Assembly (NCBI GenBank): GCA_949517355.1
Contig: CATDIL010000005.1
Location: 1 to 64,000 of the forward strand
Direction of reading: 5' to 3'
Source: an uncultured Mycoplasmatota bacterium
Lineage (GTDB): Bacteria > Bacillota_I > Bacilli_A > Mycoplasmatales > Mycoplasmoidaceae
Length of the DNA: 64,000 nucleotides
The translations under genes were made by a program, and so were the position numbers. The notes under the pieces were generated by a model. The model saw only the letters and a program-made list of their open reading frames with translations. It was not told where the DNA came from and searched no databases. This document shows positions 1 to 39,935 of the stretch, one piece after another; within the stretch, counting starts at the first letter, position 1, and the number at the start of each line of letters is the position of its first letter.

Positions 1-1326
1 ACATTTAGAACCTTCTGCAAAGGTTAAATTTTCAATAAAATCTGGAATTGTTGATTCTGATCCGTTATAAAAAGCACTTTCATTAATACTTGTAACTCTA
101 GCAGGGATTTGCATAGTGTTACATAATCTATATGCTCTTGAATTAGCTAAGAATTCTGAAGTAAAACCCATTAAGACATCGTTTTCAATGCGATATACAC
201 TATCTGGTAATTCAGCATCTGGTAATCAACTTTCTGGTAATCCACCATTATTTAATAAATATTCAAGCAATGCTATACTATCATGTGCGTCATCACTTTG
301 GTTTGCAACAGTCACAGCTCCTCTATCTGAATAAACACCACTGAATGAAGTATCATATAATGTTGTATTACCCTTTCAAGAATCTCATGTAATACTATTT
401 AAACTAGAACAACCAGCAAAAACATTCATACCCAATGTTGATAAATTACTTGGCAAAGATATAGAAGTGAGTGATAAACACTTTTCAAAAGCACAATTGC
501 CAATTGAAGATAAACTAGTTACATTTGAAAAATCAATAGAGGATAATGAAGAACAACCTCGAAATCCATAGTATTCAATTTTTTCTAAACTTTCTGGAAG
601 TTTTACTGAAGTTAATGATTTACAGGTATCAAATCCAGAATGATCAATTAATGTTAAATTAGTGCAGTTTGATAAATCAATTGAGGTAAGTTTAGAACAA
701 TTACCAAAAGCTTCAGATGGAATTTTGGTTAAATTATCTGAAAAATTTACTGAAATTAATGATGTACAACCATAAAATGCATAAAATTCCATTGAAGAAA
801 GAATAGTACATTTTGATAAATCAACAGAAGTTAATGATGAACAATTTTCAAAAGCGTGGCCTCTAATCAAAGACAAGTTAATTGCATTTGAAAAATCAAT
901 ATGATTTAGTGTTGAACTTTCAAAAGAACGTATTCCAAAAGAAGAACATTTAGAACCTTCTGCAAAGGTTAAATTTTCAATAAAATCTGGAATTGTTGAT
1001 TCTGATCCGTTAAAAAAAGCATTTTCATTAATACTTGTAACTCTTTCTGGAATCTGCATAGTGTGAAAATCTTGAAAATTGTCTTTATAAATAGGAGAAG
1101 TTGAATCGTTTAAAAATTCATCTTTAAATCCCAATAAAACATTGTCGCTGTTAATTTCATAAACATCATCTGGTAAAACTTTTTGATCAACAGGTTCATC
1201 TCCGCCTCCGCTGTTTTTTTCTTGAATGGAATAAACTATTCCACCTATGCCGACTGCAACTGTAGCTGTTATTCCACTACATAATGCAATCAAATTTAAT
1301 AATTTTTTGTTTAACTTCTTGTTCAT
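1..1326 (-). CDS. BspA-like leucine-rich-repeat surface protein, multi-module (3' end beyond left edge)
   Basis: Reading TGA as Trp, one open frame runs from ATG at 1326 off the left edge (at least 442 codons). A lysine-rich start (MNKKLNKKLLNLIALCSG) and a hydrophobic stretch (about residues 10-35) act as export signal or membrane anchor; a clear lipobox like that of its relatives is not obvious. Then comes a family module: LPDDVYEI, VLLGFKDEFL, MQIPERVTSI, then 22-23-residue repeats of the CSSLTSIDLSNC type (LRR_5/BspA class) and a cap near 240-400 (LLEYLLNNGGLPESWLP). After the cap a second module starts again (DSVYRI, VLMGFTSEFL, MQIPARVTSI), so this is a tandem fusion of units. BspA-like proteins are cell-surface adhesins in several host-associated microbes; adhesion here is inference. 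It has its own promoter with a 17-A tract. The sequence at 1-94 repeats 946-1039 almost exactly. Confidence 0.85.
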
Positions 1327-1380
1327 ATTTACCTTTATATATTAATATAATATACTCTTTTTTTTTTTTTTTTTCAAAAA
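1327..1380 (-). promoter_or_regulatory. Promoter of the 1326 BspA-like gene with A17 tract
   Basis: On the minus strand, 17 consecutive A (plus-strand T at 1358-1374) sit directly upstream of GAGTATATTATATT, which holds a TATATT/TATTAT -10 box (about 1347-1354). A weak AAAGG ribosome site lies just before the ATG at 1326. The tract occupies the place of the -35/-10 spacer. This is the arrangement known from Mycoplasma hyorhinis vlp genes, where tract length switches transcription. Switching here is inferred. Confidence 0.7.
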
Positions 1381-1392
1381 AATCGAAAAATA

Positions 1393-1430
1393 ACAAAAAA
1401 AATGTACCCAATATTTTGAGTACATTTGCA
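1393..1430 (-). terminator. Rho-independent terminator of the 1441-2820 gene
   Basis: Arms ATGTACTCAA and TTGGGTACAT (minus strand) around an AATA loop are followed by eight T. It begins just after the TAA at 1441-1443. The same hairpin type recurs at 26605-26636 and 27577-27608. Confidence 0.8.
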
Positions 1431-1440
1431 ATTAAGTTAA

Positions 1441-2820
1441 TTAATCTTTAGCTACTTCTCAAGAAGACAGTAATCCACCTTTTTCTTTTAAAAGTGATAA
1501 TAATTCACTAGAAGTATAATTTCCTGTTGATTTAACATGTCCTGTATTTGGGATATATTTAAAACTTTCAACTCCAATTATTGGAGCGCTGTTTAAATTA
1601 TTTCAAATAATTTCTTCAATAGACCTACAAAATTCAAAAGCAGAATCACCAATTATTTGTAAACTACCTGGGAATGTTATAGAATGTGATTTGCATTCAA
1701 AAAACGCAAATGCATCAATCGAAGTTAGATTGATATATTTTGATAAATCAAGAGGTGTTGATAATGGACAAGCAAAAAAAGCATACATACCAATTGATGA
1801 TAAATTATTACAATTTGATAAATTAACTGTTGTTAAAGAATAACATCATCCAAAGGAATTCATACCAATTGAAGATAAATTGTTAGGAAACTTAATAGAA
1901 GTTAATTTATTACGTCTACAAAAACCACTTTGTCCTATTGATAACAAATTAGTGCAATTCGATAAATCAATGTAAGTAATTTCACCAGGCTCTTGTCCTG
2001 AAGTTCCTGATGCTCTAAAAGCACTTTGACCAATTGTAGAACATTGAGATCCTTTAGCAAAAGTTAATTTTGTAATAAATGATGGAATTGTTGATGTTGG
2101 TTGAGAAGAATCGGGAATAAAAAAAGCATTGTCAGCAACACATCTTACTCTTGCTGGAATTTGCATAACACTACGTTCACCATAAGCAGATGGATTATCT
2201 AAAAATTCTTGAGTAAAACCTCGCAAAACATTATTTTCGTCTATATTATAAACTTCATCTGGTAAAGGTAATCAACTCTCTGGTAACCCACCATTATCAT
2301 GTAAACATTGAAGCAATTCATTTTCACTATGTTCACCACTAGTATTAGTTATAGTCACTATTCCGCCAGTTGGACAAACACCACTGAATGCATCGCTAGA
2401 TAAAAAACGGAATGAACCAGTTCAACGATCTCATATAATACTATTTAAACTAGGACAATCATTAAAAACATTTAAATCAACAGATGTTACAGTACTTGAA
2501 AAATCAATAGAAGTTAATGAAGAACATTCCATAAATGCAGATTGATTAATTTGTGTTAGATTATTCGCTTTTGAAATATCAGCTGAAACCAATGATGAGC
2601 AAGAACGAAAAGCGGAGTGATCAATAGATGAACAATTAGAATTTTCAGCAAAAGTTAAATTTTTGATAAAAGATGGAATTGTTGATACAGAATTCTTATA
2701 AAAAGCTTTTCCACTAATTTTTGTTACTCTTGCTGGAATTTGCATAGTATTGCATAATCTATAAGCACTTTGATTAACTAAAAATTCAGTAGTAAATCCT
2801 TTTAATACATGGTAGAGCAT
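1441..2820 (-). pseudogene. BspA-like LRR gene lacking its 5' end (promoterless copy)
   Basis: One continuous minus-strand frame (TGA = Trp) ends at TAA 1441-1443 with the family tail GGLLSSWEVAKD. It contains two modules: VLKGFTTEFL, MQIPARVTKI and LRRs with cap LHDNGGLPESWLP, then VYNIDENNVLRGFTQEF, MQIPARV and more LRRs. It starts abruptly inside a module: the signal peptide, the usual LPDxVYxI segment and any promoter are missing. The only nearby ATG (2820) lies in DNA belonging to the divergent hydrolase. The BspA-type sequence stops at about 2808. It may be a dead remnant or a silent donor cassette for the expressed copy at 1-1326; the frame is otherwise undamaged, which favours recent truncation or maintained use as a donor. 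Confidence 0.8.
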
Positions 2821-3600
2821 GGTGCAAGATATGATAAATTTGCTAAATTTCTTAATTCAAAAGGGTATTTAGTAGTAGCTGATGATCATAGAGGGCATGG
2901 AAACACAGATAAAACTACTTTAGGTTATTGTGATGGTGATATGTTTGCTGATACAGTTAAAGATGAAGGATTTATTACAGACTACTATAAACAAAAATAT
3001 CCTAATCTTAAATACTTTGTATTCGGTTTTTCTTATGGTTCATTTCTAACTCAAAGTTATATTGGTAAATATGGTTACAAAATTGATGGAGTAGTAATTG
3101 GTGGAAGTAATTACAAGAAAGATTTTCAAGTATACTTAGGATCTTTTGTGTGTTTATTTAATAACAAAAAGAAACCAGCAAAACTTATTGAAAAACTTTC
3201 TTTTGGTGCATATGCAAAGAATTTTGATGAAGGAGAATGATTAAGTGTTGATAAAGATAATAATGCACGTTATCATGCTGATCCTTATTGTAAATTTACT
3301 TGCTCATACAGATTTTATGCAGATTTCTTTAGAGGGTTAAGGAAATTGTATACTAAAAAATACATTAGTAATCTTAACAAAAATTTGCCTATTTTATTGA
3401 TTTCTGGTAAAGATGACCCTGTTGGTAATATGGGTAAAGGTGTGAAAAAATTATTTAATTTTTATAAAAATAAAGCCAAAATTAAACATGTTTCATTGAT
3501 TTTATTTCCTCATAGTAGACATGAGTTTTTAAACGAGATGCCTGAAGCTTTAAAAAGATATGAAATCTTATTAGATTTTTTTAATAAATATAATGCTTAA
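2809..3600 (+). pseudogene. Alpha/beta hydrolase (lysophospholipase/monoacylglycerol lipase type), 5'-truncated
   Basis: The frame has TGA = Trp at 3238 and 263 codons from the first ATG. Visible family features are DDHRGHGNT near residue 25, nucleophile elbow GFSYGS, catalytic Asp in GKDDPVG and catalytic His in HSRHEF near the C-terminus. The protein begins with MVEHGARYDKFAKFL; in this family those residues normally follow the HG oxyanion-hole motif about 30 residues in, so the first strand and the HG are absent. The ATG overlaps head to head with the truncated BspA-like gene and there is no promoter or ribosome site. Probably inactive. A second, complete hydrolase of the broader fold lies at 43523-44269. 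Confidence 0.75.
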
Positions 3601-10903: not shown

Positions 10904-14410
<3,507 letters not shown>

Positions 14411-26636: not shown

Positions 26637-26651
26637 GTCAATTTTAAAAAT

Positions 26652-26697
26652 TTGTTGCAAAAAAAACAGTATAATATTAAAAATGGGAGAACAAATT
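26652..26697 (+). promoter_or_regulatory. Promoter of BspA-like gene 26698 with A8 tract
   Basis: TTGTTGC is followed by A8 (26659-26666), CAG and TATAAT (26670-26675). GGGAG lies upstream of the ATG. Same architecture as the other BspA-family promoters here. Confidence 0.65.
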
Positions 26698-27427
26698 ATG
26701 AATAAAAAATTAATCAAAACTATTGCAAGTATTACTTGCGGACTAGGAATTGTTGGATTGATTTCAATAACATCTACTAGTTGTAATAATCATTCATGAC
26801 CAAAAAAACGCTATACCAAAAGAATATCTTAATATCTCTAATGGCACATTGTATGGATTTAAAGACACTTTTATTCCAACTGATCACGCTAATGATTATG
26901 ACACATTATTAATCCCAAAAGACGTGATAACCATTAATCGAGGAGCATTTGATTTTGATAGTGACACTGCATTACCTTTATTTGTTAGAAATATAATGTT
27001 TGAAGATAATTCAAAAATTAATACCATTCAAGACTTTGCTTTTAATTTTGGTTCATATACTCCAGATAAAATTGTTTTGCCAGAGGGATTAACACAAATG
27101 GGCTGTTTTTATTCTTATAATAATGGCATCTCAACTATTGTTTTACCTTCCACTCTTAATGAAATTCCAAGTAATTCTTTATTTAATGGAGAAACATTAT
27201 GAATAGGCAGCATTATATTTAACAATATAGATTTATCAAACAATCATAATTGATTAAAAAAAATTAGCTCTGTAACATTTTCTTCTGATTCATTGCTTTT
27301 AACTGGAGCAATCAGAGTATCTGGTAAAAGCAATAATAGCTCAACAGAAGTTTTAAATTATTTAATAGAACATACAAAAGATCCACAATCACAAAAATCG
27401 CCATTTTCTTATTGGGCAGCAATATAG
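26698..27427 (+). pseudogene. BspA-like lipoprotein gene, frameshifted in an A7 run
   Basis: ATG 26698 opens with the family signal MNKKLIKTIASITCGLGI and a lipobox-like SCN at about residue 32. The frame then runs out of register at A7 (26802-26808) and stops at TAA near 26,831. One A fewer would give PKNAIPKEYL and join the long downstream frame (YGFKDTFIP, LLIPKDVITI, LRR-like text such as VLPEGLTQM and FSSDSLLL) to TAG 27425-27427, about 242 codons. Only weak LRRs are present and the conserved C-terminal GGLPS tail is replaced by FSYWAAI. This could be a phase-OFF gene rather than a dead one, because everything else is intact. Confidence 0.75.
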
Positions 27428-27576
27428 AATACAAGATATGGAACGGTTTGATATTCAAATAGTTCCGTTTTTCACAACAATTATTAGAACGAATTATAAA
27501 AAAAAGATAGTTTTTCAACTGTAGATGGTTGAAGACTTGTTGAAATTTTTAATTAATAAATTAATATTTTGCAGGA

Positions 27577-27610: not shown

Positions 27611-27663
27611 AAATTTATTCAAAAAAAAAAGAGAGTATATAATACTAAATATTAGATAAAAAT
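27611..27663 (+). promoter_or_regulatory. Promoter of BspA-like gene 27664 with A10 tract
   Basis: A10 at 27621-27630 followed by GAGAG and TATAAT at 27638-27643, 20 bases before the ATG. Family-type arrangement. No Shine-Dalgarno sequence is evident. Confidence 0.65.
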
Positions 27664-28452
27664 ATGAATATGAATAAGAAATTACTAAAATCAATTTTAT
27701 GCATTGCATCTGGAGTTGCAATTGCTACATCAATTCCGTTTGCTACTACTGGTTGTGGGAGTGCAATAATTGAATCAAAAATATTACCATATGATGTTTA
27801 CAATATAGATACCAATAATATGTTCCAAGGGTTTAAAAATGAATTTTTAAATGATTCAGCTTCCCCTATTTATAAAGACAATTTTAAAAATTGCGACACT
27901 ATGGAAATTCCGGCTAATGTTAAAGAGGTTATACATACAGGTCTTAATACAGCTATTCCATCATATATTAAGAACTTAACTTTTGCTAAAAATTCTCAAT
28001 TGTCATCAATTAATTCTTGTGCTTTTCAAAATTGTTCATCATTAACTTCTGTTGATCTTTCAAACTGTAATAGTTTAAAAATAATTTTAGATAGTAATTT
28101 TAGAGATTGTGAATCATTGTCCTCTGTAATTTTACCAAGTAATTTAACTACAATAAAAGTAAATGCTTTCAGAGAAACTGCATTAACATCAATAACTTTC
28201 CCAAGTACTTTACAAACAATTGAAAATGCTTCCTTCGATGATTGCTCTAATTTAAGCAGTATTACATGAAATAAATGAGGTAATGTTAATTTTACAATAG
28301 GAAATAATCCATTTCGAAATATTTCTTCTAAAGGAACAATAACAGTTATAGATCCAATTGATCAAAACCATAATAGCGAAGCGTTACTTGCATATTTAAA
28401 AACTAATGCCGGGCTGCCATCGGGTGAAGGAACTGATTGGAAGTCAGTTTAA
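27664..28452 (+). CDS. BspA-like leucine-rich-repeat lipoprotein, intact single-module form
   Basis: 262 aa with TGA-Trp codons. Signal MNMNKKLLKSILCIASG and lipobox FATTGC put Cys31 as the lipidated residue, so the protein is a surface lipoprotein. Then LPYDVYNI, FKNEFLNDSASPIYKDNF, MEIPANVKEV, IPSYIKNLTFAKNS and four or five LRRs of the CSSLTSVDLSNC type, ending with LLAYLKTNAGLPSG. It is the cleanest single-unit member and defines the module that is repeated in tandem in the 1-1326 and 1441-2820 genes. Adhesion or host interaction is inferred from the BspA class. Confidence 0.85.
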
Positions 28453-38360: not shown

Positions 38361-38828
38361 TTAACAAAATACGTTTAAATTAAATCCGATAATTACGTTT
38401 GTTTTTAAGCTATCGTTAGTTACTCCAAAAACTTCAATTTTTACATACGTATCTGGGCTGATTTTTATACATGTTACTTGCAATTGGTTTTGATCGTTAA
38501 TTTCAAGTGTAATATACTCTCTTCAATTATCTCATATAACATAGTCTGATTGAGGGCTACTAGTATAAAAAACATTGAACGATCAAGAAAATGAAGATGG
38601 TTTTTGAGGTATTATAAAAAAGGTTCCTTCAGTTTTAGTTGTATGTGGATCATTGTTACAACCTATTTGTTCTAAATTTTTAGATTGTTCTGTACCATTA
38701 TATTTAATTTCAACTTTTTCAGTAGGTGTCTCATTTGAGTTGCAACTTGATATAGCAAATGGAATAGTAGTAGTTATTCCTAATCCACATGTAATGCTTG
38801 CGATAGTTTTGATTAATTTTTTATTCAT
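38361..38828 (-). CDS. Lipoprotein with BspA-family signal but no leucine-rich repeats
   Basis: 155 aa with TGA-Trp codons. The first 30 residues, MNKKLIKTIASITCGLGI..., nearly match the BspA-like gene at 26698, ending in a lipobox (FAISSC). The mature part (DYVIWDNWREYITLEI, VKIEVFGVTNDSLKT) is beta-rich and unlike LRRs; I recognise no family. Shared leader and promoter suggest the signal region is a mobile or recombining cassette placed before different surface domains. AGGAG precedes the ATG. Confidence 0.75.
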
Positions 38829-38870
38829 ATTTTCTCCTTTTTAATATTTATACTTTTTTTGCAACAAATT
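38829..38870 (-). promoter_or_regulatory. Promoter of lipoprotein 38828 with A7 tract
   Basis: Minus strand GTTGC, A7 (plus-strand T at 38854-38860), G, TATAAA (38847-38852), then AGGAG before the ATG. Same layout as the other surface-gene promoters. Confidence 0.65.
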
Positions 38871-39887: not shown

Positions 39888-39935
39888 TTTTTTATCTCCT
39901 TATATAGTATTTATACTACTTTTTTTGCAAGAAAA
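39888..39935 (-). promoter_or_regulatory. Promoter of BspA-like gene 39887 with A7 tract
   Basis: Minus strand TTGC, A7 (plus T at 39920-39926), GTAG, TATAAA (39910-39915), then AAGGAG seven bases before the ATG. Confidence 0.65.

What the first reader, a model, noticed from the sequence alone, without database searches (positions are those of the whole stretch)
1347..1380. A17 tract in the promoter of a multi-module BspA-like gene: likely transcriptional phase switch
Seventeen A lie directly before the -10 box. The same placement governs vlp phase variation in Mycoplasma hyorhinis (established). At 17 units the tract should be highly mutable, and it is the longest homopolymer I noticed in the window.
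Basis: partly seen in the sequence, partly recalled or inferred. Interest (0 to 1): 0.72.

Follow-up and report, generated by a model that had tools for sequence, protein, structure and literature searches.

The report
Poly-A promoter switch for surface proteins
A run of 17 A's sits inside the promoter of a surface-protein gene in an uncultured mycoplasma, and the same device, with different run lengths, lies before many other surface-protein genes in this species and its closest relatives, so it very probably turns these genes on and off at random.

Summary
A17 lies on the minus strand at 1358-1374, three bases before TATATT, with TTGAAA at a 17-bp spacing, upstream of a multi-module BspA-like ORF. 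It is the longest homopolymer in the window; the next A/T run is A10, in the same position before another BspA-like gene.

It is not a single case. Of the ten A/T tracts of 13 or more in this 636-kb genome, eight occupy the same promoter slot. Pattern searches found 51 such promoters, in 6 of 36 same-genus genomes; on a protein tree of 30 of the 36 those six form one clade. Tracts run from A14 to A22 (one A10). The target genes are mostly BspA-like surface proteins, plus a glycosyltransferase. Two G000/G026 promoter pairs differ by exactly one A, with no other indel in 600 bp of flanks. Three other species of the genus carry poly-T in the same slot, which suggests that spacer length matters.

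Best reading: a vlp-type, slippage-driven promoter spacer (transcriptional phase switch), applied to a dispersed BspA-like repertoire. Variation within a population, and transcription, could not be tested. A comparable T-tract in M. agalactiae vpma does not switch. The mechanism is known; its spread and apparent replacement within one genus look new.

The parts
1358..1374 (-). A17 tract, in the -35/-10 spacer
1349..1354 (-). -10-like TATATT
   Evidence: consensus match only; same position TAT in 50 of 50 related sites by construction of the search
1355..1357 (-). GAG linker between tract and -10; last base G in 50 of 50 analysed sites (partly by construction of the search)
1372..1377 (-). -35-like TTGAAA (its AAA belongs to the tract); 17-bp spacer at the present tract length
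1400..1427 (-). terminator-like hairpin of the upstream gene, so the BspA-like gene is its own transcription unit
   Evidence: z -3.9, 0 of 200 shuffles as good
1..1326 (-). BspA-like multi-module surface protein ORF (code 4), open at the window/contig edge; N-terminal hydrophobic anchor, no lipobox
1441..2820 (-). BspA-like ORF without signal peptide (5' truncated), upstream neighbour
27621..27630 (+). A10 tract in the same slot (TTTATTC-A10-GAGAG-TATATAAT)
27664..28452 (+). BspA-like lipoprotein gene behind the A10 promoter
26651..26666 (+). TTTGTTGC-A8, short form of the same slot, before a BspA-like gene whose frame is broken early
38854..38868 (-). TTTGTTGC-A7, short form of the slot
38361..38828 (-). 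155-aa lipoprotein-like ORF behind the A7 slot; no Pfam match
39920..39926 (-). A7, short form of the slot, before a BspA-like gene whose frame stops after 33 codons

Best explanation
The A17 tract is a contingency element in a promoter. It fills most of the spacer between a -35-like TTG and the -10 TATATT of a BspA-like surface-protein gene that has its own terminator-bounded unit. Slipped-strand mispairing during replication should add or remove A's; no mismatch repair MutS was found in the genome. Each change alters the -35/-10 spacing from 17 bp, the sigma-70 optimum, and so raises or lowers transcription. At A17 the window's promoter is predicted ON or near ON. The same device, with independent tract lengths, stands before several other surface-protein genes and one glycosyltransferase gene, so cells of one population would show different combinations of surface proteins. 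Shown: the anatomy, the family of promoters, the target genes, and tract-length differences between paralogues and between orthologues with otherwise intact flanks. Inferred: slippage within a population, and the effect on transcription.
For: Own genome: 10 A/T tracts of at least 13; 8 have the tract-GAxx-TAT slot, each before an ORF start. An anchored pattern finds 17 sites in 4 of 36 genus genomes and 0 for the reversed pattern. A broader pattern hits 6 of 36 genomes, with reversed-pattern hits in 2 others. Together these are 51 distinct sites. Of the 50 analysed, lengths are 14-22 with one A10. The upstream TTTxTTGC was not part of those two patterns, yet T is at -6 and at -7 in 49 of 50 and C at -1 in 40 of 50. 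Of 45 products scanned, 29 match LRR_5; 34 of 44 have a lipobox-like motif. Orthologous promoters change length by one A with no other indel. Similar paralogous promoters differ in length in 47 of 59 pairs, against a flank indel in 30 of 59. The six genomes form one clade, support 100/99, in a LepA tree of 30 of 36 genomes. Poly-T takes the same slot in G023 (16 pattern hits, 16 tracts), G009 (7 hits, 8 tracts) and G022 (9 hits, 27 tracts). No MutS found (0 of 1 genome; controls ring in 11 of 14). Predicted spacings pile up from 17 bp upward.
Against: No reads and no second strain: variation within one population is untested, and tract lengths come from metagenome assemblies (55-bp end overlaps), in which long homopolymers are the least certain bases. 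No transcript data. The T-tract at the vpma promoter of M. agalactiae does not switch (PMC2268961). Tract and linker lengths do not compensate each other (Spearman -0.02, n = 49), as one might have expected if the assembled state were usually ON. The spacing values used a tie-break towards 17 bp. One near-identical pair of G035 promoters has equal tracts (A18/A18; one of the two, L201, was dropped by my duplicate filter), as do 12 of the 59 pairs.
Confidence: 0.82

Rival explanations
1. The tract is a fixed structural part of the promoter (bent or rigid spacer, or an alpha-subunit contact) that raises transcription. Its length drifts but has little effect, as for the vpma T-tract.
For: A- and T-tracts are common near promoters of AT-rich genomes (general knowledge); the vpma T-tract was shown not to switch (PMC2268961).
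Against: Tracts of A14-22 are far above what structure needs (inference). 9 of 36 genus genomes have no A/T tract of 13 at all. The same slot holds poly-T in three other species, which reverses the tract's polarity. Tracts are concentrated on variable surface-protein genes.
Confidence: 0.12
2. Expression is chosen mainly by recombination among BspA-like copies; the promoter with its tract is only a conserved piece of the cassette.
For: Near-identical N-terminal pieces stand before different bodies. The two C1 contig ends share 55 bases inside the same gene family. A 5'-truncated copy ending at 2810 is 97.6% identical over 1027 bp to one on C6.
Against: Each analysed locus has its own complete promoter; no single expression site, invertase site or promoterless cassette array was found (none was searched for systematically). 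Unrelated targets (glycosyltransferase, Ig-repeat-like lipoprotein) carry the slot too. The two processes can coexist.
Confidence: 0.05
3. The tract length is an assembly or sequencing artefact, or a neutral AT-rich repeat.
For: Short-read metagenome assemblies; long homopolymers are error-prone (general knowledge).
Against: The tract itself recurs at the same slot in six genomes with conserved motifs on both sides; reversed patterns give almost nothing.
Confidence: 0.01

Closest known systems
vlp genes of Mycoplasma hyorhinis (Citti and Wise 1995; read only as described in passages of PMC10502178 and PMC2268961)
   Same: Adenine homopolymer in the promoter spacer beside the -10; each surface gene its own transcript; several paralogues with their own tract
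   Different: Here the genes are BspA-like (LRR_5), Ig-repeat and glycosyltransferase genes dispersed over the genome. The window's product lacks a lipobox. Switching is not shown.
BspA-like genes of Candidatus Mycoplasma girerdii (PMC5476646, passages read)
   Same: Mycoplasma; many BspA-like copies; simple repeats that vary in length, shown there from metagenome reads. The window genome also encodes a pyruvate:ferredoxin oxidoreductase, which the paper calls unique among mycoplasmas to that species.
   Different: There mainly dinucleotide repeats within reading frames (translation); here a mononucleotide tract in the promoter (transcription).
maa2 (M. arthritidis) and vmm (M. mycoides), as mentioned in PMC2268961
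   Same: Spacer-length change between -35 and -10 turns a surface gene ON or OFF
   Different: Different genes; vmm varies by dinucleotides (PMC10502178)
vpma T-tract of M. agalactiae (PMC2268961)
   Same: Homopolymer immediately upstream of the -10
   Different: Reported not to generate variation; vpma switches by the Xer1 recombinase

Membership tests
slippage-controlled promoter spacer of the vlp kind | homopolymer between -35 and -10 elements | tested here: met
   (consensus match TTGAAA-17-TATATT)
slippage-controlled promoter spacer of the vlp kind | same tract in several paralogous surface genes, each with its own promoter | tested here: met
slippage-controlled promoter spacer of the vlp kind | tract length differs between homologous promoters with conserved flanks | tested here: met
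slippage-controlled promoter spacer of the vlp kind | length variants coexist in one population | not testable with these tools
   no reads available
slippage-controlled promoter spacer of the vlp kind | tract length sets transcription ON or OFF | not testable with these tools
   no expression data
Vlp lipoprotein family itself | lipoprotein (lipobox at the N-terminus) | tested here: not met
   product is LRR_5/BspA-like without lipobox
BspA-like surface proteins | LRR_5 repeats above the curated cut-off and an N-terminal export or anchor signal | tested here: met
   (147.5 bits, cut-off 27.7); hydrophobic N-terminus read by eye
coding-repeat phase variation as in Ca. M. girerdii | repeat inside the reading frame | tested here: not met
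   tract lies 31 nt upstream of the ATG

The most novel reading that the evidence does not exclude
One genus of uncultured mycoplasmas keeps re-inventing the same switch. Its species place a slippery mononucleotide tract at surface-protein genes, but base and position have been replaced several times: poly-A in the -35/-10 spacer (one clade of six species), poly-T in that spacer (three separate branches), A-tracts just after the -10 (G004), or at or inside the start of the reading frame (G018). A species may carry about 20 independently switching promoters (19 sites in G035), and in two species one of them drives a glycosyltransferase, so surface protein and surface sugar would vary combinatorially.
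Probability: 0.5. Interest if true: 0.65.

Novelty: new member of a known kind. Interest (0 to 1): 0.5.

Why it matters
If true, an uncultured gut-type mycoplasma lineage can be read for phase variation straight from metagenome reads: each promoter carries its own predicted ON/OFF state. The poly-A and poly-T versions of one slot in related lineages give a natural test of whether spacer length, rather than base composition or bending, sets promoter strength. It also extends promoter slippage to BspA-like proteins, a family shared with a urogenital protist and its mycoplasma partner (PMC5476646, passages).

Tried and rejected
Compensation between tract and linker length, as a sign of selection for one ON spacing: rejected, Spearman -0.02 over 49 sites; only G026 alone gave p = 0.04 among the four genomes tested.

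Pfam identity for the G011 and G026:C23 products (MIKK...) and the Ig-repeat-like lipoprotein at C1:163122: none matched.

Poly-A promoters in viral contigs: none. Promoters in the wider order: the A14-GTATAAT pattern hits 15 of 248 genomes; downstream ORFs are mixed, so this gave no clean positive control, except two G079 sites with TTTGTTGC-A17/A20-(G)GTATAAT some 150-175 nt before long ORFs whose names I could only guess from memory.

Literature: one search returned nothing; two papers; five; thirty-two (top 15 seen as a listing); seven; two; eleven. None of the listings or abstracts seen describes A-tract promoters at BspA-like genes; I read passages of PMC10502178, PMC2268961, PMC5476646 and PMC10507020 only. 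Citti and Wise 1995 itself was not read; that A17 is the vlp ON length is recalled.

Sites dropped before counts: L201 (G035:C14, A18) was removed by my duplicate filter (seen), so 50 of 51 sites were analysed; two further tract promoters (G026:C4 A15, G035:C39 A19) did not fit the -10 expression and were left out. Six of the 50 sites had no usable ORF (contig ends or short frames) and are not in the Pfam count; the 45 scanned are 44 of these sites plus one A7 site. The LepA tree holds 30 of 36 genomes. Tracts of other species were looked at for only 40 of the listed places, in five genomes.

Full report
What is there. The window lies in a 636-kb, 9-contig genome of an uncultured mycoplasma, 29% G+C, read with TGA as Trp. 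Its first base is the end of contig C5. On the minus strand an ORF of at least 442 codons runs from 1326 off the edge. The A17 tract (1358-1374) is followed by GAG and TATATT, and the ATG lies 31 nt after the tract. A consensus scan reads TTGAAA-17-TATATT. The preceding gene ends in a terminator-like hairpin at 1427-1400 (z -3.9), so the BspA-like gene seems to be its own transcription unit.

More than chance. The next longest A/T run in the window is A10, and it too stands before GAGAG-TATATAAT and a BspA-like lipoprotein (27621-27630). In the whole genome there are ten tracts of 13 or more. Eight have the form tract - GAxx - TAT - ATG: C1:151 A19, C1:163122 A16, C1:196554 A17, C2:1513 A16, C2:2894 A18, C2:65667 A14, C5:1358 A17, C7:196 A16. 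The other two (C1:7212 T16 and C1:123498 T25, read on the coding strand) lie upstream of a -10-like element before a lipoprotein-like and a membrane-protein-like ORF; they are not in the spacer slot.

Relatives. An anchored pattern (A10, GA, up to three bases, GTAT) found 17 sites in 4 of 36 genomes of the genus and none for the reversed pattern. A broader pattern (A12, one to seven bases, GTATAWWW) hit 6 of 36: G000, G011, G026, G029, G032, G035; the reversed pattern hit G034 once and G024 five times, overlapping hits counted. Counting each -10 once, the two searches give 51 distinct sites: 9 in G000, 1 in G011, 7 in G026, 11 in G029, 4 in G032, 19 in G035. Of the 50 analysed (one G035 site was lost to a duplicate filter), tract lengths are A10 once and A14-A22 otherwise. 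The bases upstream were not part of these searches and still read TTTxTTGC: T at -6 and at -7 in 49 of 50, C at -1 in 40 of 50. In a LepA tree of 30 of the 36 genomes the six form one clade (100/99).

Targets. Of 45 products scanned (44 of the 50 sites and one A7 site), 29 match LRR_5, 2 match He_PIG and 2 are family-2 glycosyltransferases. A lipobox-like motif is present in 34 of 44; the window's gene and its closest relatives have a hydrophobic N-terminus without one. The glycosyltransferase slot is conserved in G026.

Length change. Three promoter pairs between G000 and G026 could be aligned: A16/A17 with 7 substitutions and no indel in 300 flanking bases; A14/A15 with 14 substitutions and no indel; A16/A16 with diverged flanks including indels. 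Among promoters of the same genome that are at least 90% identical over the 90 bases downstream, the tract differs in 47 of 59 pairs, while those 90 bases carry an indel in 30 of 59. These pairs share loci and are not independent, and G035 supplies most sites.

How it probably works. Taking the best TTGACA-like hexamer at the tract's 5' edge, spacings over the 50 sites are 12 (the A10 site), 16 (one site), 17 to 22 (47 sites) and 26 (one site); in G000, 7 of 9 are 17-19 and in G035, 15 of 18 are 19-21 (ties were broken towards 17, so the floor is partly built in). Slippage would move a promoter along this scale. No MutS was found in this 90%-complete genome, against 11 of 14 control genomes. 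The window's promoter, at 17 bp, is predicted active. Steps shown: anatomy, recurrence, targets, length differences. Steps inferred: slippage in a population, effect on transcription.

The same slot with another base. In G023 the 16 tracts of 13 or more are matched by 16 hits of a poly-T-spacer pattern (the 11 places listed in both coincide); all 11 fetched have TTGC, TTGCG or TTGTG, then T16-20, then a -10-like TTAAAAT, CTAAAAT or TTATAAT, before one paralogous family. G009 has 7 hits for 8 tracts, G022 9 for 27. On the LepA tree G023, G009 and G022 lie on three separate branches, with relatives outside both groups between them. G004 has A-tracts just after a TATAGT before lipoprotein-like ORFs, and G018 has them at or within the start of the reading frame. 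Poly-A and poly-T in one slot fit a role for length better than for bending or polarity. This part rests on 40 places looked at in five genomes.

Against. No reads, no strains, no RNA. A homopolymer beside a mycoplasma -10 need not switch: for vpma it does not (PMC2268961). Tract and linker lengths do not compensate. In the window, the shorter forms of the slot (A7, A7, A8, A10) include two before genes with broken frames (26659 and 39920) and two before open ones, so a link between tract loss and gene decay is only a hint.

Known or new. vlp, maa2 and vmm are reported cases of spacer-length switching (PMC2268961, PMC10502178, passages). Ca. M. girerdii shows repeat-length variation of BspA-like genes from metagenome reads, but by repeats in the reading frame (PMC5476646, passages). 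The combination here, a dispersed BspA-like repertoire under A-tract promoters, was not met in the listings. I file it as a new member of a known kind; the replacement of base and position across the genus is the more novel part.

Noticed in passing
window 10904-14410 +: Pyruvate:ferredoxin oxidoreductase (POR_N 4e-73). PMC5476646 (abstract passage) calls this enzyme unique among mycoplasmas to Ca. M. girerdii, so this lineage may share that metabolism.
   Followed up: no
window 2800-2825: Head-to-head junction of two ORFs that both seem to lack their usual starts: a BspA-like gene (minus) and an alpha/beta hydrolase (plus). The BspA-like part is 97.6% identical over 1027 bp to C6, the match ending at 2810: a rearrangement breakpoint or assembly join.
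   Followed up: partly
window 26683-27430 + and 39896-38898 -: Two BspA-like genes with broken reading frames behind short (A8, A7) forms of the promoter slot; intact relatives exist elsewhere in the genome.
   Followed up: partly
contig ends C1L, C1R, C2R, C3R, C5L, C5R, C6L, C6R, C7L, C8L of G000: 10 of the 16 contig ends examined lie inside BspA-like genes, several with 49-55-base overlaps or shared terminal 55-mers, as expected if near-identical copies broke a short-read assembly.
   Followed up: partly
L261, L264 (G022): ORFs behind poly-T promoters begin with coding CA repeats (HTHTHT...), so promoter and coding repeats may act on the same gene.
   Followed up: no
L254-L260 (G018): A14-A16 at or inside the first codons of lipoprotein-like genes; some frames run through and some stop, as in translational phase variation.
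   Followed up: partly
L298, L312 (G079, another family of the order): TTTGTTGC-A20/A17-(G)GTATAAT some 150-175 nt before two related long ORFs; the same motif far outside the genus.
   Followed up: partly
window: A single C9 run in a 29% G+C window; its place and gene were not examined.
   Followed up: no
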